A stretch of DNA of 64,000 nucleotides from Neoarius graeffei. Its lineage: Eukaryota; Chordata; Actinopteri; Siluriformes; Ariidae. Of the stretch, positions 36,870 through 47,900 are shown piece by piece. Position 1 is the stretch's first letter. Each line of letters opens with the position of its first letter. The translations under genes and the position numbers were made by a program. The notes under the pieces are model-generated. The model saw nothing but the letters and a program-made list of their open reading frames with translations. It was not told where the DNA came from and did not search any database. The stretch spans positions 44,383,732-44,447,731 of the forward strand of contig NC_083587.1 of assembly GCF_027579695.1 (NCBI RefSeq), given 5' to 3'.

Positions 36870-37085
36870 GGCGGCACGGTGGTGCAGTTGGTTAGCACTG
36901 TTGCCTCACAGCAAGAAGTTTCTGGGTTTGAGCCCAGTGGCTGACGGGGGCTTTTCTGTGTGGAGTTTGTATGTTCTCCCCGTGTCTGCATGGGATTCCT
37001 CCGGGTGCTCCGGTTTCCCCTACAGTCCAAAGACATGCAGGTTAGGTTAACTGGTGACTCTAAATTGTCCATAGGTGTGTGTGAA
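36870..37085 (+). mobile_element. Old tRNA-headed SINE, 3' end lost
   Basis: Head GGCGGCACGGTGGTGCAGTT with an extra T, body to CTAAATTGTCCATAGG, then unrelated sequence. Confidence 0.85.
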
Positions 37086-38397: not shown

Positions 38398-38783
38398 AAG
38401 AAGAAGAAGAAGAAACCTTTATTTGTCACATGCACACTTCAAGCACAGTGAAATTCATCCTCTGCATTTAACCCATCTGAAGCAGTGAACACACACACAC
38501 ACACACACACAGAGCAGTGGGCAGCCACACTAGAGCGCCTGGGAAGCAGTCAGGGGTTAAGGTACCTTGCTCAAGGGCACTTCAGCCCAAGGCCGCCCCA
38601 CGTTAACCTAACTGCATGTCTTTGGACTGTGGGGGAAACCGGAGCACCTGGAGGAAACCCACGCAGACACGGGAAGAACATGCAAACTCCAAACAGAAAG
38701 ACCCTCGCCAGCCACTGGGTTCGAACCCAGAACCTTCTTGCTGTGAGGCGACCGTGCTAACCACTACACCACTGTGCTGCCCA
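38398..38783 (-). mobile_element. SINE with the second type of 3' tail
   Basis: Reading on the minus strand: the common head (GGCAGCACAGTGGTGTAG, B box GGTTCGAACCC) and body up to AGGTTAACG, then a switch to a different 3' half containing GCTGCCCACTGCTC, a (GT)n run, GGGTTAAATGCAG and a (CTT)n end. Confidence 0.88.
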
Positions 38784-38819
38784 TTTTTAATGTATTTACA
38801 GTTGTTTGTATGTATTTAC

Positions 38820-39301
38820 TGTTAGGACTAGGACTGTTTTGGCCTCTAGAGGCCGCTGTTATTTCCTTTTCATGTCGTGTTTATTTTGGCCTCTAGAGGC
38901 CGCCACTGTTCCTGTGTTTTGTGTTTGTGTTAATTGCCTAATTATCTTCACCTGTGTCCTTAATTAGTTTGTCTATTTATACCCCTGAGTTCAGTCCTCT
39001 TGTCACGGAGTCTTTGTGCTGTTATGTTTATCTCCAGTTTCCTTTGTACTGTGTTTTTTTTGATCTTCTTAGCTTTTGAATTTTTTGCACTTTGCTTTTC
39101 TTTTGGATTTTACTCTTTGGTTTTTTTTTTGTCTTTTGTTTTGCCCTGTATATAGTGTATATAGTTTAAATAAACCTTTTGATTCTTTTTCTACTTCCGC
39201 CTCACGCCTCTGCATTTGAGTCATCCCCCTGGTGGCCTAGTGGGGGTTTGCTGGATTATCACACCAACGAACCAGGTTCGAATCCCAGCAAAACCCTAAC
39301 A
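38820..39301 (+). repeat. 5' LTR
   Basis: TGTTAGG...CTAACA, 482 bp. Two copies of the perfect palindrome GGCCTCTAGAGGCC (38841-38854, 38888-38901) lie in U3, TATTTATA at 38974, AATAAA at 39169-39174. U5 ends with Pol III-like A and B boxes (39233-39243, 39275-39285). Confidence 0.96.
38974..39015 (+). promoter_or_regulatory. LTR promoter and predicted transcript start
   Basis: TATTTATA at 38974-38981 places initiation near A39005, 31 nt downstream. That base opens ACGGAGTCTTT, the 11 nt complementary to the priming site just after the LTR. The start position is predicted, not measured. Confidence 0.7.
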
Positions 39302-39314
39302 GAAAGACTCCGTC
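39302..39314 (+). promoter_or_regulatory. Primer-binding site of self-priming type
   Basis: AAAGACTCCGT (39303-39313) begins one base after the LTR and is an exact 11-nt complement of 39005-39015, the predicted transcript 5' end. No TGG, the normal start of a tRNA primer site, is present. In Tf1 the first 11 nt of the mRNA prime reverse transcription in the same way. Confidence 0.8.
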
Positions 39315-40334
39315 ATGACCGACTCAGCAGAGGCTGCTTCAACTGTCTACCCGGCCAACCTTCAGGGAATTATGGCAGCTTTGACACGCTTCGGAGCGAC
39401 CATGGACGCTCATGGACGTACGCTCACCAGCCAACGTGAGGCCCTCGCTCGCCACGAGGAACTGCTTCAGCAAATTGGGAAAACCCTGGCACAGCTGACA
39501 TCTCTGCCTGCATCTCCTGCTCCTGATCCAGTTCCTGCTCCTGATCCAGCTCCCACTCCTGCTCCAGTGCCTCCTGCAATGCTGCCTTCTTCACCTCACG
39601 AACCCAGCCTTCCTGCACCACAGAGGTATGACGGCAAGCACAGTGAGTGCCGAGAGTTCCTTACCCAGTGTCAACTCACCTTTGAGCTTCAGCCTACCAC
39701 CTACACTACGGATCGCCGCAAGATTGCCTTTGTGATCACCTTATTAGCTGGTAAGGCGCGAGCCTGGGCTACTGCTATCTGGCAAAGACAGGGACCTGAG
39801 TGCTTTGATTTCCAGCTGTTTTCTGAAGAGATGCTTCGGGTCTTCGATCAGGCAGACATCAGTACCGACGCAGCCCGAAAGCTCATGTCCATCCGGCAAG
39901 GAGGAAGCGTCGCAGATTACGCCATCTCGTTCCGAACACTCGCAGCAGTAAGTGGATGGAACGAGACTGCCCTGGTGTCAGCCTTCCACCATGGTCTGTC
40001 TGACCCCATCAAGGACGGTCTGGCCTCTATTGGATGCCCAAGTGACCTCGAAACCCTCATCTCACATGCTATTCGTCTGGACAACAGGATGAGAGAACGC
40101 CACCAAGCCTTGAGCCCCCCCAGCCTCCCTACCTCTACCTGGAGACCGTCTACCTCCTTCAGTGACTGTCCAGAACCCATGCAAGTGGGTCGTACTCGCC
40201 TCTCCGCATCTGAGAGGGAGCGCAGAAGGAGGGACAAGTGCTGCATCTACTGTGGCAAGCCTGGTCACTTCCGAGCATCATGTCCCGAACTCTTGGGAAA
40301 AGGACCGCCCCGTCCAGCCGAGGGAGGGTTGTGA
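39315..40334 (+). CDS. gag: Gag protein of the gypsy element
   Basis: 339 codons, starting at the ATG two bases after the priming site and ending at TGA inside the frameshift hairpin. Residues 1-60 are helical; about 60-95 form a Pro/Ala-rich linker with repeated PDPAPxP; about 100-240 hold the retrotransposon Gag domain ([14 protein letters not shown], then 'AWA', FDQADIS, 'FRTLA'), the type domesticated as PEG10/RTL genes in mammals. A CCHC zinc knuckle (Cys-X2-Cys-X4-His-X4-Cys) at about 309-322 binds RNA. It forms the virus-like particle and packages RNA. The frame is intact throughout. Pol is expected only as a Gag-Pol fusion through the -1 shift near codon 328. Confidence 0.94.
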
Positions 40335-43300
40335 CGGGGCCTACCCTCTCTCCCGGACTCCCTGGCCAAGGAATCTACATCCCGATCTCCATCTCCTGGG
40401 GTGAGTCTGTCCACTCTTGTCAAGCTTTGATAGACTCAGGGGCGGCTGGGAACTTTATGGATATTCACTTCGCCCAAAGCATCAATATTCCGACTGCACC
40501 TCTTGAAGTCCCACTGTCTGTGTCTGCCCTCGATGGCCAAGCGTTAGGTGATGGAAGAGTCACTCAAGTTACTTCTCCAGTCTTCCTCCAGTCTCAAGGT
40601 CACAAGGAAGAAATATCCCTGCACCTGATTCCTTCACCTGAGTTCCCAGTTATTCTAGGCCTTCCTTGGCTTACTCGCCACAACCCTCGCATAGACTGGG
40701 TAACAAGCCAGGTTGTGGAATGGGGCCCTGCATGCCATGCCTCTTGTCTGCTCTCTAGCTATCCTGTGTCTCCTGCCGAGCCCCCTGATCTCACCGAGTT
40801 ATCTCAAGTTCCCACAGAGTACTGGGATCTCAAGGAGGTATTCAGCAAGAGCAGGGCCGCCGTTCTTCCTCCGCACCGGGCCTACGACTGTGCCATCGAC
40901 TTGCTCCCTGGGACTACCCCTCCTCGTGGCAGACTGTTTTCACTCTCTCAGCCAGAACGCAAGGCCATGGAGGAATACCTCAAAGATGCCCTGGTCTCTG
41001 GGTTTATTCGACCCTCCACTTCACCTGCTGGAGCCGGCTTCTTCTTTGTCGGCAAGAAGGATGGGGGGCTCCGACCATGTATTGATTACAGGGGCCTGAA
41101 TAAGATCACTGTGCGCAACCGATATCCCCTTCCGCTGATGTCCACAGCTTTCGACCTGCTCCAAGGCGCCACCGTCTTCACCAAGTTGGACCTACGGAAC
41201 GCATACCACCTCATCCGTATCCGACAGGGAGACGAGTGGAAGACTGCCTTTAACACCCCGTCTGGGCACTACGAATACCAGGTGATGCCCTTCGGACTCA
41301 CCAACGCACCAGCTGTTTTTCAGGCCCTAATCAACGACGTCTTAAGGGACATGATTAACCTATACGTTTTTGTCTACCTCGACGACATCCTTATCTTTTC
41401 CAAGACCGTGCAGGAGCACCGCCACCATGTCCGCCAGGTTCTCCAGAGGCTGCTACAGAACAATCTGTTCGCCAAGGCCCAGAAATGCGAATTTCATGTT
41501 CCCGAGGTCTCCTTTCTGGGATTTATTGTACGGACAGGCCAACTCCAAATGGACCCTGCCAAGACCCTGGCCGTCCGGGATTGGCCTACTCCCAAGTCCG
41601 TTAAGGAGGTTCAGCGGTTCTTAGGATTCGCTAACTTCTACCGCAAGTTCATCAGGAACTTCAGTTCTGTGGCAGCACCCATGTCAGACCTCACCAAAGG
41701 GACAGGTGGATCTTATGGCTGGTCTCCTCAGGCAGAAAAGGCGTTCAAAGACCTCAAGGACCGCTTCTGCACGGCACCCATTCTGGTTCTCCCGGACACC
41801 TCCCAACCATTCATCGTGGAGGTGGACGCCTCGGACAGTGGTGTCGGCGCGGTGCTCTCTCAACGTTCGGAAGGAAAGCTGCACCCCTGCGCTTACTTCT
41901 CCCACCGCCTGAGTCCTGCTGAGTCCCGGTACGATGTGGGGGATCGAGAACTGCTAGCGGTCAAACTGGCCCTTGAGGAGTGGAGGCACTGGCTGGAGGG
42001 AGCACAACATCCATTCCTGGTTTGGACTGACCACAAGAACCTGGAGTACCTCCAGCAAGCCAAGAGACTGAACCCTCGACAGGCTAGGTGGGCCCTGTTT
42101 TTCAGTCGGTTTGACTTCACCCTCTCATACCGCCCCGGCTCCAAGAACACCAAACCTGACGCACTGTCCAGACTGTTCTCTGCCACTAACAGGGAGAATG
42201 AAGTCGGGCCTATTATCCCTGTGTCCCGGATTGTGGCCCCTGTCCGCTGGGGTATTGAGGAGGCTGTCCGACGAGCCCAATGCCAGGACCCCGGTCCTGG
42301 GACGGGGCCACCAGGCCTCTTGTACGTCCCACATCAAGCCCGGGCCAAGGTTCTCCAGTGGGGTCACTCTTCCCCTCTCACCGCCCACCCGGGAGCTCGG
42401 AGGACCCTGGACTTCCTGAAAAGACGCTTCTGGTGGCCTAACATGGAGAAGGAAGTAAGGTCATTTGTCCTGTCCTGTGAGGTTTGCACCAGAACCAAGA
42501 ACCCACGACAGCGTCCCCAGGGTCTCCTGCATCCTCTGACCATTCCCCGGCGTCCCTGGTCCCACGTGGCAGTCGACTTTATCACGGGTCTCCCTGAGTC
42601 ACAAGGTAACACGGTCATTTTGGTCTTAGTTGACAGATTCTCCAAGGCCTGCCGCTTCATACCACTGTGCAAACTCCCCTCTGCTCTTGAAACTGCGAAA
42701 CTTTTGTTTAATCATGTCTTCCGAGTCTTTGGTCTTCCACAGGACATCGTCTCAGACCGAGGGCCCCAGTTCTCCTCCCGAGTGTGGCACGGGTTCTGCA
42801 AGGTCATCGGAGCCACTGCCAGCCTCTCCTCTGGGTTTCACCCACAGTCCAATGGTCAGACGGAGAGGCTCAACCAGGACCTGGAAACCACCCTGCGAGG
42901 CCTGGCTATGGATAACCCGACATCGTGGAGCACCTGGCTGCCATGGGCGGAGTACGCCCACAACACCCTGCAGTCATCGGCCACCAAGCTGTCGCCATTC
43001 CAGTGCCAATTCGGGTTCCAGCCACCTCTGTTCCCGGACCAGGAGGAGGACGCGGGGGTGCCCTCGGTCAACCAATATGTGAGACGGTGTCGCAAGACCT
43101 GGAGCAAGGTCAGGAAGACCCTCATACAGACCTCCAGAACCAACCAGACTCAGGCCAACCGCCATAGAAGACCTGCACACGCTTTCCGCCCTGGGCAGCG
43201 TGTTTGGCTGTCCACTAAGGACCTTCCACTGCGGGTGGAGAACCGCAAGCTTGCTCCTCGCTACATTGGCCCCTTCAAGGTGGTGCGCAGGGTGAACCCT

Positions 43301-43633
43301 GTCTCCTACCGGCTCCAGTTGCCCCGGACTCTGAGGATCAACCCCACTTTCCATGTTTCCCTGTTACGGCCCGTACTGACGTCTACGTATGCCCCTGCCC
43401 CTAGGAACCCCCCACCCCCCCGCATCTTCCAGGGGCAGACTGTGTTCACTGTGAATCGCCTGCTTGACTCCCGCCGGGTCCGCGGCGGGTTGCAATATCT
43501 GGTGGACTGGGAGGGCTATGGTCCTGAGGAGCGCTGCTGGGTTCCTGCTCGGGATGTCCTTGATAAAGAACTATGTCGGGACTTCCATTCGGCCCATCCG
43601 GATCGCCCTGGGAACGTCAGGAGACGCTCCTAG
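40238..43633 (+). CDS. pol: Pol polyprotein: protease, RT, RNase H, integrase, chromodomain
   Basis: Open for 1131 codons counted from 40238. It is expected to be entered by frameshift at 40295-40301 rather than from its own start. In this numbering: protease active site DSG at 66-68; reverse transcriptase about 230-430 with YLDD at 380-383; RNase H with its first Asp at 530; integrase HHCC zinc finger at about 708-750; integrase core Asp780, Asp840, Glu876 (D,D-35-E); then a chromodomain near 1070-1125 ([17 protein letters not shown]). The order PR-RT-RH-IN is normal for gypsy. The chromodomain marks the chromovirus branch and probably guides integration to particular chromatin. No stop, shift or lost catalytic residue is seen. 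Ends at TAG immediately before the polypurine tract. Confidence 0.95.
40295..40348 (+). promoter_or_regulatory. -1 ribosomal frameshift signal (slippery heptamer plus pseudoknot)
   Basis: The gag codons TTG GGA AAA contain the heptamer GGGAAAA (40295-40301) in the correct X-XXY-YYZ phase. A 5-nt spacer leads to an 8-bp stem (40307-40314 with 40333-40340, GCCCCGTC/GACGGGGC). Loop bases GAGGG (40320-40324) can pair with CCCTC (40344-40348), giving an H-type pseudoknot. The gag stop lies at the stem base. Confidence 0.85.
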
Positions 43634-43645
43634 AGGGGGGGGTCC

Positions 43646-44127
43646 TGTTAGGACTAGGACTGTTTTGGCCTCTAGAGGCCGCTGTTATTTCCTTTTCATG
43701 TCGTGTTTATTTTGGCCTCTAGAGGCCGCCACTGTTCCTGTGTTTTGTGTTTGTGTTAATTGCCTAATTATCTTCACCTGTGTCCTTAATTAGTTTGTCT
43801 ATTTATACCCCTGAGTTCAGTCCTCTTGTCACGGAGTCTTTGTGCTGTTATGTTTATCTCCAGTTTCCTTTGTACTGTGTTTTTTTTGATCTTCTTAGCT
43901 TTTGAATTTTTTGCACTTTGCTTTTCTTTTGGATTTTACTCTTTGGTTTTTTTTTTGTCTTTTGTTTTGCCCTGTATATAGTGTATATAGTTTAAATAAA
44001 CCTTTTGATTCTTTTTCTACTTCCGCCTCACGCCTCTGCATTTGAGTCATCCCCCTGGTGGCCTAGTGGGGGTTTGCTGGATTATCACACCAACGAACCA
44101 GGTTCGAATCCCAGCAAAACCCTAACA
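43646..44127 (+). repeat. 3' LTR
   Basis: Same length and, on reading, same sequence as the 5' LTR, including the homopolymer runs. Followed by the second TTTAC. Confidence 0.96.
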
Positions 44128-44195
44128 TTTACATTGAATTTACTAAATAAAATCAATCAATCAATTGAGTATATTATAATCCAGTACATTGATCC

Positions 44196-44578
44196 AGGGT
44201 GGCACAGTGGTGTAGTGGTTAGCACTGTTGCCTCACAGCAAGAAGGTCCTGGGTTTGAGCCTCGTGGCCGGTGATGGTCTTTCTGTGTGGAGTTTGCATG
44301 TTCTCCCCGTGTCCGCGTGGGTTTCCTCCGGGTGCTCCGGTTTCCCCCACAGTCCAAAGACATGCAGGTTAGGTTAACTGGTGACTCTAAATTGACCGTA
44401 GGTGTGAATGTGAGTGTGAATGGTTGTCTGTGTCTATGTGTCAGCCCTGTGATGACCTGGCGACTTGTCCAGGGTGTACCCCGCCTTTCGCCCGTAGTCA
44501 GCTGGGATAGGCTCCAGCTTGCCTGCGACCCTGTAGAACAGGATAAAGCGGCTAGAGATAATGAGATGAGATGAGATG
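44196..44578 (+). mobile_element. Full-length tRNA-headed SINE
   Basis: Head GGTGGCACAGTGG, B box GGTTTGAGCCTC, (ATGAG)n tail, 348 bp upstream of the hus1 ATG. No clear duplication. Confidence 0.93.
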
Positions 44579-44977: not shown

Positions 44978-47900
44978 GTAGGTAAATAGTCAAAAGTAGT
45001 TAAATTATCCTGCAAGCTAACATGCGGTTCTCAGACTGTAGTAATATAATTAACTGTTTTAATAAGCTAATGTATTTGTGATGTGGTAAAAGTGTAACAG
45101 CTGTGCATTACTCCAGCTGTGCTGACTGTGTACATCCTTCCCCGTATTAACATAACGCTATGTTTGAATAAGATAGTGTTAGTGATGTGCCGATATCCTG
45201 CCTGTGGTAATCCTTAGTGCTTTAACAGGTAACATGTTAGTTTTATTATATTCTTATGTATTAATGAGGGTTTTTGCACCTGGTTTCAGACTCTTATTTT
45301 TACAGCCATCTGTTACGGTTTAATTAAGAATAGTTTGGGCTGGAACAGTAAATGGGATGGGAGCTAATTTGCATAGTGATTTGCCTGACTCGTCATAATT
45401 ATTTGCATATTAAAACATGCTAGAGAGGCGGCTACAATTATCGACACCTTAATGAGCTTTTGGCCGTTGCAAAAGTAGAAAAGACTTTCAGTACGTGACT
45501 TGTGCATGAATAATTACTCAAACTTCCACTGGAAAAAAAATGAGTTAATTCCCAATTACTTAGCGTATCAGATCACATGACACCTTTCAACACAGTTATC
45601 GACACCTTTGTCCACAGTTATCGACACCTTTGTCCACAGTTATCGACACCTTTGTCCACAGTTATCGACACCGTTCCACAATTATGGACACCTTTGTCCA
45701 CAGTTATCAACACTGTTCCACAGTTATCGACACCTTTCTCCACAGTTATCGACACCTTTCTCCACAGTTATCGACACCTTTGTCCACAGTTATCAACACC
45801 GTTCCACAATTATGGACACCTTTGTCCACAGTTATCGACACTGTTCCACAATTATCGACACCTTTGTCCACAGTTATCAACACCGTTCCACAATTATGGA
45901 CACCTTTGTTCACAGTTATCGACACTGTTCCACAATTATCGACACCTTTGTCCACAGTTATCAACACCGTTCCACAGTTATCGACACCTTTGTCCACAGT
46001 TATCGACACCTTTGTCCACAGTTATCAACACCATTCCACAATTATCGACACCTTTGTCCACAGTTATCAACACCGTTCCACAATTATGGACACCTTTGTC
46101 CACAGTTATTGACACCTTTGTCCACAGTTATCGACACTGTTCCACAATTATTGACACCTTTGTCCACAGTTATCAACACCGTTCCACAATTATGGACACC
46201 TTTGTCCACAGTTATCGACACTCTTCCACAGTTATTGACACCTTTGTCCACAGTTATCAACACTGTTCCACAATTATGGACACCTTTGTCCACAGTTATT
46301 GACACCTTTGTCCACAGTTATCAACACCATTCCACAATTATGGACACCTTTGTTCACAGTTATCGACACCTTTGTCCACAATTATCGACACCATTGTCCA
46401 TAGTTATCGACACCTTTGTCCACAGTTATCAACACCGTTCCACAGTTATCGACACTGTTCCACAATTATTGACACCTTTATCCACAGTTATCAACACCAT
46501 TCCACAATTATGGACACCTTTGTCCACAGTTATCAACACCGTTCCACAATTATGGACACCTTTGTCCACAGTTATCAACACCGTTCCACAATTATGGACA
46601 CCTTTGTCCACAGTTATTGACACTGTTCCACAATTATTGACACCTTTGTCCACAGTTATCGACACCGTTCCACAATTATGGACACCTTTGTCCACAGTTA
46701 TTGACACCTTTGTCCACAGTTATCAACACCGTTCCACAATTACGGACACCTTTGTTCACAGTTATCGACACTGTTCCACAATTATGGACACCTTTGTCCA
46801 CAGTTATTGACACCTTTGTCCACAGTTATCAACACCATTCCACAATTATGGACACCTTTGTTCACAGTTATCGACACTGTTCCACAATTATGGACACCTT
46901 TGTCCACAGTTATTGACACTGTTCCACAATTATTGACACCTTTGTCCACAGTTATCGACACTGTTCCACAATTATGGACACCTTTGTCCACAGTTATCAA
47001 CACCGTTCCACAATTATGGACACCTTTGTCCACAGTTATCGACACTGTTCCACAATTATGGACACCTTTGTCCACAGTTATCAACACCGTTCCACAATTA
47101 TGGACACCTTTGTCCACAGTTATCAACACCGTTCCACAATTATGGACACCTTTGTTCACAGTTATCGACACTGTTCCACAATTATCGACACCTTTGTCCA
47201 CAGTTATCAACACCGTTCCACAATTATGGACACCTTTGTCCACAGTTATCGACACCTTTGTCCCAGTTATCGACACTGTTCCACAATTATTGACACCTTT
47301 GTCCACAGTTATCAACACCGTTCCACAATTATGGACACCTTTGTCCACAGTTATCGACACCTTTGGCCACAGTACAAATAGAGTAGTCAAGCACACATAC
47401 TTCTAGGGTTTATGTAGCTTTTTGTTCCTCAACAAGGTCTGTAAATGTTTATCAGTATCATTGTGTCTGCAGGTGTGGTGAATACCATTACAAAACTCAC
47501 AAAGGCTTGTGTTGTACGACTTAATGTCGACAACATTTTTTTCGTCCTTTCTGGAAAAGTTGCCAATGGAGGAGTCAGTATGTGGTGTGAGTTACTGCAG
47601 GTAAATCCCTATTCATTTTTTTCATTGTGCTTTTATGTCAGAAACAGACCAGTGACAAGTTGAAGTAAAATCCAACATCAAGTAGGCCACCATGAGCCAC
47701 CAGAACAGCTTTAATGTGCCCTGGCATTGATTCTGTACATCTCTGGAACTGTAGTGGAGGGATGAACTGTTTCTTGCATATTACCTCCTTTGGCATTTTG
47801 ATGATGGTGTAGGTAAATGCTGTCTAACATATCAGTCCAAAAATCTCTAGATGATTGTGAAGGGCATAGCATTTGATTTCTATCATTTGTGTGGTGCAGT

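What the first reader, a model, noticed from the sequence alone, without database searches (positions are those of the whole stretch)
38974..39313. Tf1-type self-priming site in a vertebrate gypsy element
The 11 bases after the 5' LTR (AAAGACTCCGT, 39303-39313) are the exact complement of 39005-39015. That stretch starts 31 nt after a TATTTATA box, exactly where transcription should begin. No tRNA-type TGG site exists. This is the geometry of Tf1, where the first 11 nt of the mRNA fold back as primer; here in an intact fish element with identical LTRs. Self-priming has been proposed for the Tf1/sushi group, so the mechanism may not be new, but this copy is unusually clean.
Basis: partly seen in the sequence, partly recalled or inferred. 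Interest (0 to 1): 0.85.

Follow-up and report, generated by a model that had tools for sequence, protein, structure and literature searches.

The report
Self-primed retrotransposon in a fish
A very recently active jumping gene in what looks like a fish genome seems to start copying itself with the first letters of its own RNA instead of a borrowed tRNA, and related families in the same genome have changed both halves of the matching sequence together, as that mechanism requires.

Summary
AAAGACTCCGT (39303-39313, one base after the LTR end at 39301) is the exact complement of 39005-39015, which starts 31 nt after TATTTATA. LTRs are identical (482 bp) with a TTTAC target duplication; gag and pol are open. 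Domains are those of a Tf1/sushi-type chromovirus.

Related families have different primer words, each complementary to its own PBS: ACGGAGTCTTT, ACTGAGTCTTT, CTCTGATCGC or CTCTGATCGT, GCTGAGTTCT, and in one copy GCCAGAATGT. In family B a C-G/T-A pair matches in 13 of 13 copies and switched at least twice. PBSs swapped between families never match perfectly (0 of 1976).

Self-priming and a three-duplex 'pretzel' are already published for this group (passages), so this is a new member of a known kind. Transcript start and priming itself remain unmeasured.

The parts
38815..38819 (.). Target-site duplication TTTAC, 5' side
38820..39301 (+). 5' LTR, 482 bp, TGTTAG...CTAACA
   Evidence: identical to 43646-44127
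38974..38981 (+). TATA-like box TATTTATA
   Evidence: similar spacing to the primer in related copies
39005..39015 (+). Self-primer ACGGAGTCTTT, presumed first 11 nt of the RNA (helix I, 5' strand)
   Evidence: exact complement of the PBS; covariation
39019..39024 (+). Helix II 5' strand CTGTTA
   Evidence: paired with TAACAG at 39297-39302 in the minimum-energy fold; not tested for covariation
39169..39174 (+). Poly(A) signal AATAAA
39206..39222 (+). Helix III U5 strand GCCTCTGC-ATT-TGAGTC, with a 3-nt bulge
39233..39285 (+). tRNA-like stretch in U5: A-box-like TGGCCTAGTGG (39233) and perfect B box GGTTCGAATCC (39275)
   Evidence: 0 of 20000 shuffled LTRs hold both; no tRNA by ARAGORN or by Rfam over 38500-44300
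39297..39302 (+). Helix II 3' strand TAACAG (LTR end plus spacer G)
39303..39313 (+). Primer-binding site AAAGACTCCGT (helix I, 3' strand)
39315..40334 (+). gag ORF, 339 aa; its AUG (39315-39317) lies in the 7-nt gap between helix I and helix III
39321..39334 (+). Helix III gag strand GACTCA-GCAGAGGC
40238..43633 (+). pol ORF: protease, RT, RNase H, integrase, SH3_Tf2-1, chromodomain
40295..40301 (+). GGGAAAA, candidate -1 frameshift heptamer in the gag/pol overlap
43633..43642 (+). Polypurine tract (GAGGGGGGGG)
43646..44127 (+). 3' LTR
44128..44132 (.). Target-site duplication TTTAC, 3' side

Best explanation
The element is a young, high-copy Tf1/sushi-type chromovirus that primes minus-strand synthesis with its own RNA. 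Transcription starts at or within a base or two of 39005. The first 11 nt fold back onto the PBS one base beyond the LTR (helix I). A short duplex just behind the primer clamps the LTR end (helix II). A second stretch of U5 pairs across the PBS with the first codons of gag (helix III), so that helices I and III cross as a pseudoknot. RNase H would then cut behind nt 11 to free the primer's 3' end, as in Tf1 (the cut site is recalled). Because a primer is also copied into new plus-strand DNA (general retroviral scheme, recalled), a mutation in the LTR primer could be passed to the PBS, which would keep the two in step. Shown here: sequences, pairing, covariation, TATA spacing. Inferred: transcript start, cleavage, priming, copying of the primer into the PBS.
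For: Exact 11-bp match, 3 of 20000 shuffles. Of 56 leaders in five groups A-E, 32 have a perfect and 46 an at most one-mismatch complement of their own PBS upstream; PBSs of another group gave 0 perfect and 22 one-mismatch sites in 1976 trials, shuffled leaders 0 and 7 in 280. The family B C-G/T-A pair is matched in 13 of 13 and changed at least twice on the LTR tree. In 36 distinct rows of A-C helix I is 95.6% paired (G-U counted) against a shuffle mean of 70.3%, with both-side changes at 9 of 10 pairs; helix III 96.1% against 84.7%, both-side changes at 7 of 12; 0 of 1000 shuffles reach either. Primer starts 28-32 nt after a TATA-like box. Ensemble probability of primer-PBS pairing is 0.74 or more in 15 of the 16 leaders folded, of 56. 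No TGG within 70 nt. Chromodomain and SH3_Tf2-1 in pol.
Against: The window's leader as a whole does not fold better than shuffles (z -0.85, 21 of 100 shuffles at least as stable). L024 forms primer-PBS pairing with probability only 0.01 in the nested model. Family E (one decayed copy) and two of three D copies show no good primer, and E has no convincing helix III. Ten of 56 leaders have two or more mismatches; mismatches such as those of L011 and L074 are uncompensated. Helix II is missing from the best folds of L013, L017 and L024 and only 2-3 bp in L015 and the other B copies folded. Primer and U5 strands were picked as best complements, which inflates pairing; the swap and shuffle controls used the same picking, the shuffles did not. 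Row shuffles ignore relatedness. One published group member, SM-Tcn1, shows neither tRNA- nor self-priming signs (passage, PMC2864245). All comparative data come from one genome; there are no RNA data.
Confidence: 0.92

Rival explanations
1. A tRNA, perhaps an internal piece of one, is the primer; the match to the RNA 5' end is coincidence.
For: Half or internal tRNA pieces are used as primers by some elements (passages of PMC6317226, and PMC10886601). No host tRNA set was compared with AAAGACTCCGT here.
Against: Several different PBSs each match their own presumed RNA start, and a single base pair covaries within family B. No TGG within 70 nt of the LTR.
Confidence: 0.03
2. The pairing is a real conserved leader structure used for packaging, dimerisation or translation control, while priming works otherwise.
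For: Helix III reaches into gag and lies next to the AUG, which would fit a translation or packaging role.
Against: Helix I ends one or two bases after the LTR, where first-strand synthesis must begin, and no tRNA-type PBS is seen there; Tf1, with the same geometry, has been shown to self-prime (passages of PMC4600332 and PMC10085805).
Confidence: 0.05
3. Chance complementarity.
For: 3 of 20000 shuffles give an 11-mer somewhere in the LTR.
Against: Repeated in other families at a similar distance from a TATA-like box, with covariation.
Confidence: 0.001

Closest known systems
Tf1/sushi group of chromoviruses, vertebrate members (sushi-ichi; Butler et al. 2001, known here only as cited)
   Same: Chromodomain integrase, gag and pol in the -1 arrangement, self-primer complementary to a PBS just behind the LTR, duplexes flanking the PBS
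   Different: Primer words, tRNA-like U5 stretch and high recent copy number are what I see here; whether vertebrate members already described share them I could not check, since that paper was not held.
Tf1 of Schizosaccharomyces pombe (founder)
   Same: Primer at the RNA 5' end, PBS behind the LTR, two further duplexes between PBS-adjacent and 5' LTR sequence (passages of PMC10085805; the length of 11 nt is recalled)
   Different: Tf1 has a single ORF and a gag without CCHC; here gag and pol overlap and gag has a CCHC motif near its end (read by eye). Self-priming was demonstrated for Tf1 and is implicated elsewhere.
Tj1 and Tosmo elements of fission yeasts; moss and club-moss Tcn1 elements
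   Same: Self-priming predicted from PBS/5'-end complementarity (passages)
   Different: Hosts and sequences. Pretzels of the fission-yeast elements were identified by inspecting structures from a folding program, not, in the passages I saw, by covariation. For one Tcn1 element no self-priming signs were found.
Helenus TRIMs (Kojima 2024, PMC10886601, passages)
   Same: tRNA-like sequence inside the LTR; fish examples exist
   Different: Helenus is short and non-autonomous; here a full coding element with a TATA-like box carries the tRNA-like stretch in U5.

Membership tests
Tf1/sushi group | Ty3/gypsy pol order (PR-RT-RH-IN) with a C-terminal chromodomain | tested here: met
   RVP_2, RVT_1, RT_RNaseH, Integrase_H2C2, rve, SH3_Tf2-1, Chromo in this order
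Tf1/sushi group | RT-IN sequence falls inside the monophyletic Tf1/sushi clade | not tested
   No RT tree was built; support is only indirect (SH3_Tf2-1 and DUF4939 domains)
Tf1/sushi group | PBS just behind the LTR complementary to the RNA 5' end | tested here: met
   the RNA 5' end is predicted from a TATA-like box, not measured
Tf1/sushi group | Three-duplex leader (primer-PBS plus two duplexes between PBS-adjacent and 5' LTR sequence) | tested here: met
   helices I and III by covariation; helix II only by folding, and missing from some folds; not compared duplex by duplex with the published drawings
Tf1/sushi group | Programmed -1 frameshift between gag and pol (usual outside fission yeasts) | tested here: inconclusive
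   Overlap in the -1 frame with GGGAAAA at 40295; frameshifting not measured
Tf1-type self-priming | Transcript begins at the primer; RNase H frees its 3' end; primer RNA attached to minus strand | not testable with these tools
   Needs RNA and cDNA
tRNA-primed LTR element | PBS starting TGG, complementary to a tRNA 3' end | tested here: not met
   first TGG 71 nt after the LTR
Helenus (tRNA-like LTR TRIM) | Short non-autonomous element | tested here: not met
   gag and pol ORFs

The most novel reading that the evidence does not exclude
The leader is a covarying pseudoknot that holds the gag start codon between the primer-PBS helix and a U5-gag helix, so the same RNA can be either translated or primed, never both: a built-in switch, comparable to the U5-AUG pairing of the HIV-1 leader (recalled), in a self-primed element; and the primer re-templates the PBS each cycle, which lets primer words drift between families without losing the match.
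Probability: 0.3. Interest if true: 0.7.

Novelty: new member of a known kind. Interest (0 to 1): 0.45.

Why it matters
In the passages I could read, self-priming is demonstrated for Tf1 in yeast and implicated for vertebrate elements. Here one genome offers several families with different primer words kept in step with their PBSs, at least 150 copies with identical RT in the window's family, and a defined leader structure. That makes the mechanism directly testable in an animal, and the helix next to the AUG raises a testable link between translation and priming.

Tried and rejected
Nested folding alone: the leader's energy is not unusual (z -0.85), and the U5-gag helix cannot appear together with helix I because it crosses it; it was found with a duplex search instead. 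That duplex search showed it cleanly for most family A and several family C rows; for family B it preferred other pairings, and the B helix came from a pattern and an ungapped search.

Relatives in other collections: none confirmed in viral contigs or genome contigs, so all comparative evidence comes from one genome. Rfam over 38500-44300 gave only a sub-threshold NEAT1_2 match in pol, taken as chance.

Within-family scatter as a refutation: set aside, because mismatched copies look like older ones decaying after insertion (my reading; ages were not measured one by one). They are counted as misses. Family E (L076) and two of three D copies (L072, L075) stay without a convincing primer; L072 has a 7-bp match (GCCAGAA/TTCTGGC) 31 nt behind TATAAATA, seen by eye. 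For L018 and L033 the primer listed is only a chance-like best match. Dropped: L010, L012 and L041 (the last two are one locus) had no PBS anchor; L079 was too short for helix III. L001 is the window itself; L009 was not entered. L040-L059 cover 20 of the loci L010-L039 and, but for L041, were not entered again. Families D and E were left out and looked at. A1 and A2 share the letter A.

A Pol III role for the tRNA-like U5: not pursued; family B lacks the stretch and in family C the two boxes are only about 20 nt apart (by eye).

Novelty searches. Of papers, I saw passages of PMC4600332, PMC10085805, PMC6317226, PMC3601003, PMC2864245 and PMC10886601, and search listings of the others. Butler 2001 and three further papers on Tf1 priming were not held, so I cannot say that the crossing helix is unpublished.

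Full report
What is there. The window carries a complete LTR element: LTRs 38820-39301 and 43646-44127, identical over 482 bp, flanked by TTTAC. gag (39315-40334) and pol (40238-43633) are open and overlap in the -1 frame with GGGAAAA at 40295. Pfam finds Retrotrans_gag, DUF4939 and Ty3_capsid above their cut-offs in gag, and protease, RT, RNase H, integrase, SH3_Tf2-1 and chromodomain in pol: a chromovirus of Tf1/sushi type. No RT tree was built.

The observation. AAAGACTCCGT (39303-39313) is the exact complement of 39005-39015. One base, G39302, lies between LTR and PBS. TATTTATA begins 31 nt before 39005. Of 20000 dinucleotide shuffles of the LTR, 3 contained an 11-mer complement to a word beginning 0-5 nt behind the LTR. 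No TGG occurs within 70 nt.

The family. The held host genome has 2.34 Gb in 38 contigs. The LTR-leader query matched at 99-100% in all 40 candidates scored, out of 1001 first-look candidates. The RT query was 100% identical in all 150 scored, out of 47106. These are lower bounds from capped lists; the family has been active very recently.

Covariation of primer and PBS. A DUF4939 search (150 of 8805 scored) and a search with a distant gag, P0120 (117 of 14307 scored), brought in other families. A search with P0012 (114 of 14521 scored, hits at 53-58% to that query) I read as mostly the window's own family and fetched nothing from it. Of the loci without letters I chose 20 by eye for variety. 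From 59 entries, 56 leaders had a recognisable PBS anchor: A 30, B 13, C 9, D 3, E 1. Eight of the 30 A rows are the window and seven near-identical copies found with its own LTR. Primer/PBS pairs are: A1 ACGGAGTCTTT/AAAGACTCCGT; A2 ACTGAGTCTTT/AAAGACTCAGT (2 copies, one compensatory change); B CTCTGATCGC/GCGATCAGAG and CTCTGATCGT/ACGATCAGAG; C GCTGAGTTCT/AGAACTCAGC; D, in one copy (L073), GCCAGAATGT/ACGTTCTGGC with one G-U pair. The words are not all unlike: placed on each other's PBS, A and C primers still pair at 6-7 of 10 positions, B and D at 4-6, A with B or D at 2-3. Perfect complements: A 16 of 30, B 9 of 13, C 7 of 9, D 0 of 3, E 0 of 1; with at most one mismatch 46 of 56 in all (that script looked 750 nt upstream, so the D match at 828 nt in L073 counts as a miss there). 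Controls in the same call: PBSs from other groups gave 0 perfect and 22 one-mismatch sites in 1976 trials; base-shuffled leaders gave 0 and 7 in 280.

In family B the terminal pair is C-G in 8 copies and T-A in 5, never mixed. On a tree of the rest of the LTR the label needs three changes, and well-supported branches force at least two, so one inherited event does not explain it; recombination between copies is not excluded.

Position. In family A a TATA-like box begins 30-32 nt before the primer in 26 of 30 rows, in C 31-32 nt before in 8 of 9; family B has CTTAAG at -28 in 13 of 13; in D copy L072 TATAAATA begins 31 nt before a partial match. The distance from primer to PBS meanwhile ranges from 229 nt (L063) to 609 nt (L026), and 828 nt in L073. 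The primer is therefore tied to the promoter, as expected if it is the RNA's 5' end.

The other duplexes. Helix II: CUGUUA behind the primer pairs with UAACAG at the LTR end in the window's best fold. Comparable pairing of 4-5 bp appears in the A2 and C copies folded, 2-3 bp in L015, L019, L025 and L028, none in L013, L017 and L024 (16 of 56 leaders folded, chosen by me). Helix III: U5 GCCTCTGC-ATT-TGAGTC (39206-39222) pairs with gag GACTCA-GCAGAGGC (39321-39334). Family B has ATCTGC-ATT-TGGGTC with GACCCA-GCAGAT, and in some copies TAGGTC with GACCTA; family C has CTCTGC-ATC-TCTGTC with GACAGA-GCAGAG or near variants; D copies have TTCTGC-TTT-TGGATC with GATCCA-GCGG (9 Watson-Crick and 1 G-U of the 10 that could be seen, L072), TTCTGC-TAT-TGGATC with GATCCA-GCGAAA (10 and 1 of 12, L073) and a poorer one (9 and 1 of 12, L075); E has none better than chance. 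At least 10 of 12 Watson-Crick pairs are kept in 50 of 51 A-C copies and all 12 in 29; L023, with a rearranged gag start, is the exception. Gag strands from another family reach 10 in 681, 11 in 1 and 12 in none of 1476 trials, so shared letters make the swap control weak at the level of 10; shuffled U5 reaches 10 in 7 of 1020 and never more. In 36 distinct rows helix I is 95.6% and helix III 96.1% paired, G-U included, against shuffle means of 70.3% and 84.7%, with 0 of 1000 shuffles reaching either. Row shuffles ignore relatedness and did not repeat the picking of strands, so these counts are not probabilities. One strand of helix III is non-coding and the other is coding, so protein selection alone does not produce the match. 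Helix III crosses helix I: a pseudoknot.

The start codon. In 50 of 51 A-C copies the gag ATG lies in the 7-8 nt between the PBS and helix III (L068 reads CATTACT there). This count is partly built in, because the anchors with which leaders were recognised contain that ATG, and in D and E it was the anchor of the search; it describes the arrangement rather than tests it. In the window it is plain: PBS to 39313, ATG 39315-39317, helix III from 39321. The structure would therefore hide or strain the start codon, which suggests, but does not show, that priming and translation exclude each other.

What is known. Passages read in PMC10085805, PMC4600332 and PMC6317226 state that Tf1 self-primes with its 5' end, that a three-duplex 'pretzel' is needed, and that the same has been inferred for fungal, vertebrate and moss elements, citing Butler et al. 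2001 for vertebrates; a passage of PMC2864245 reports one group member without such signs. Butler et al. was not held. The mechanism and structure are therefore not new in kind. I did not find in print a covariation test in an animal genome or a knot around the AUG, but my searches (listed in Tried and rejected) cover open papers only, and one of the two flanking duplexes of the published pretzel may well be helix III.

Verdict.

Noticed in passing
39226-39301 (U5 of both LTRs): A tRNA-like stretch with an A-box-like word (39233) and a perfect B box (39275), 42 nt apart, inside the LTR of a coding element with a TATA-like box; 0 of 20000 shuffled LTRs hold both. It sits between helix III and helix II, is mostly kept in family A copies with some changes in both boxes, looks shortened in C and is not seen in B. 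Published tRNA-like LTRs (Helenus) are in non-autonomous TRIMs (passages).
   Followed up: partly
G000 (host genome): All 150 scored RT matches, out of 47106 candidates, are 100% identical over 250 aa and lie on contigs C1-C3 alone: a very recent burst.
   Followed up: partly
38612-38794 and copies at 36870, 37878, 44197, 48233: A dispersed repeat on both sides of the element, in both orientations; the reverse strand near 38700 reads like a tRNA-derived SINE head (reading by eye).
   Followed up: no
about 45500-47400: Array of 20- and 22-nt units that stays open over long frames on both strands (HSYRHLCPQLST-like repeats on +, VDKGVHNCGTVLIT-like on -); probably a minisatellite.
   Followed up: no
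L010 (G000:C21:21254310-21254564): Best of the 150 scored DUF4939 matches (66 bits), in a 156-aa frame and without a recognised LTR-PBS anchor; might be a domesticated gag.
   Followed up: no
L012/L041 (G000:C7:42224280): Copy with paired LTRs in which the end of the 5' LTR runs straight into gag sequence, without the PBS: apparently a deletion after insertion.
   Followed up: no
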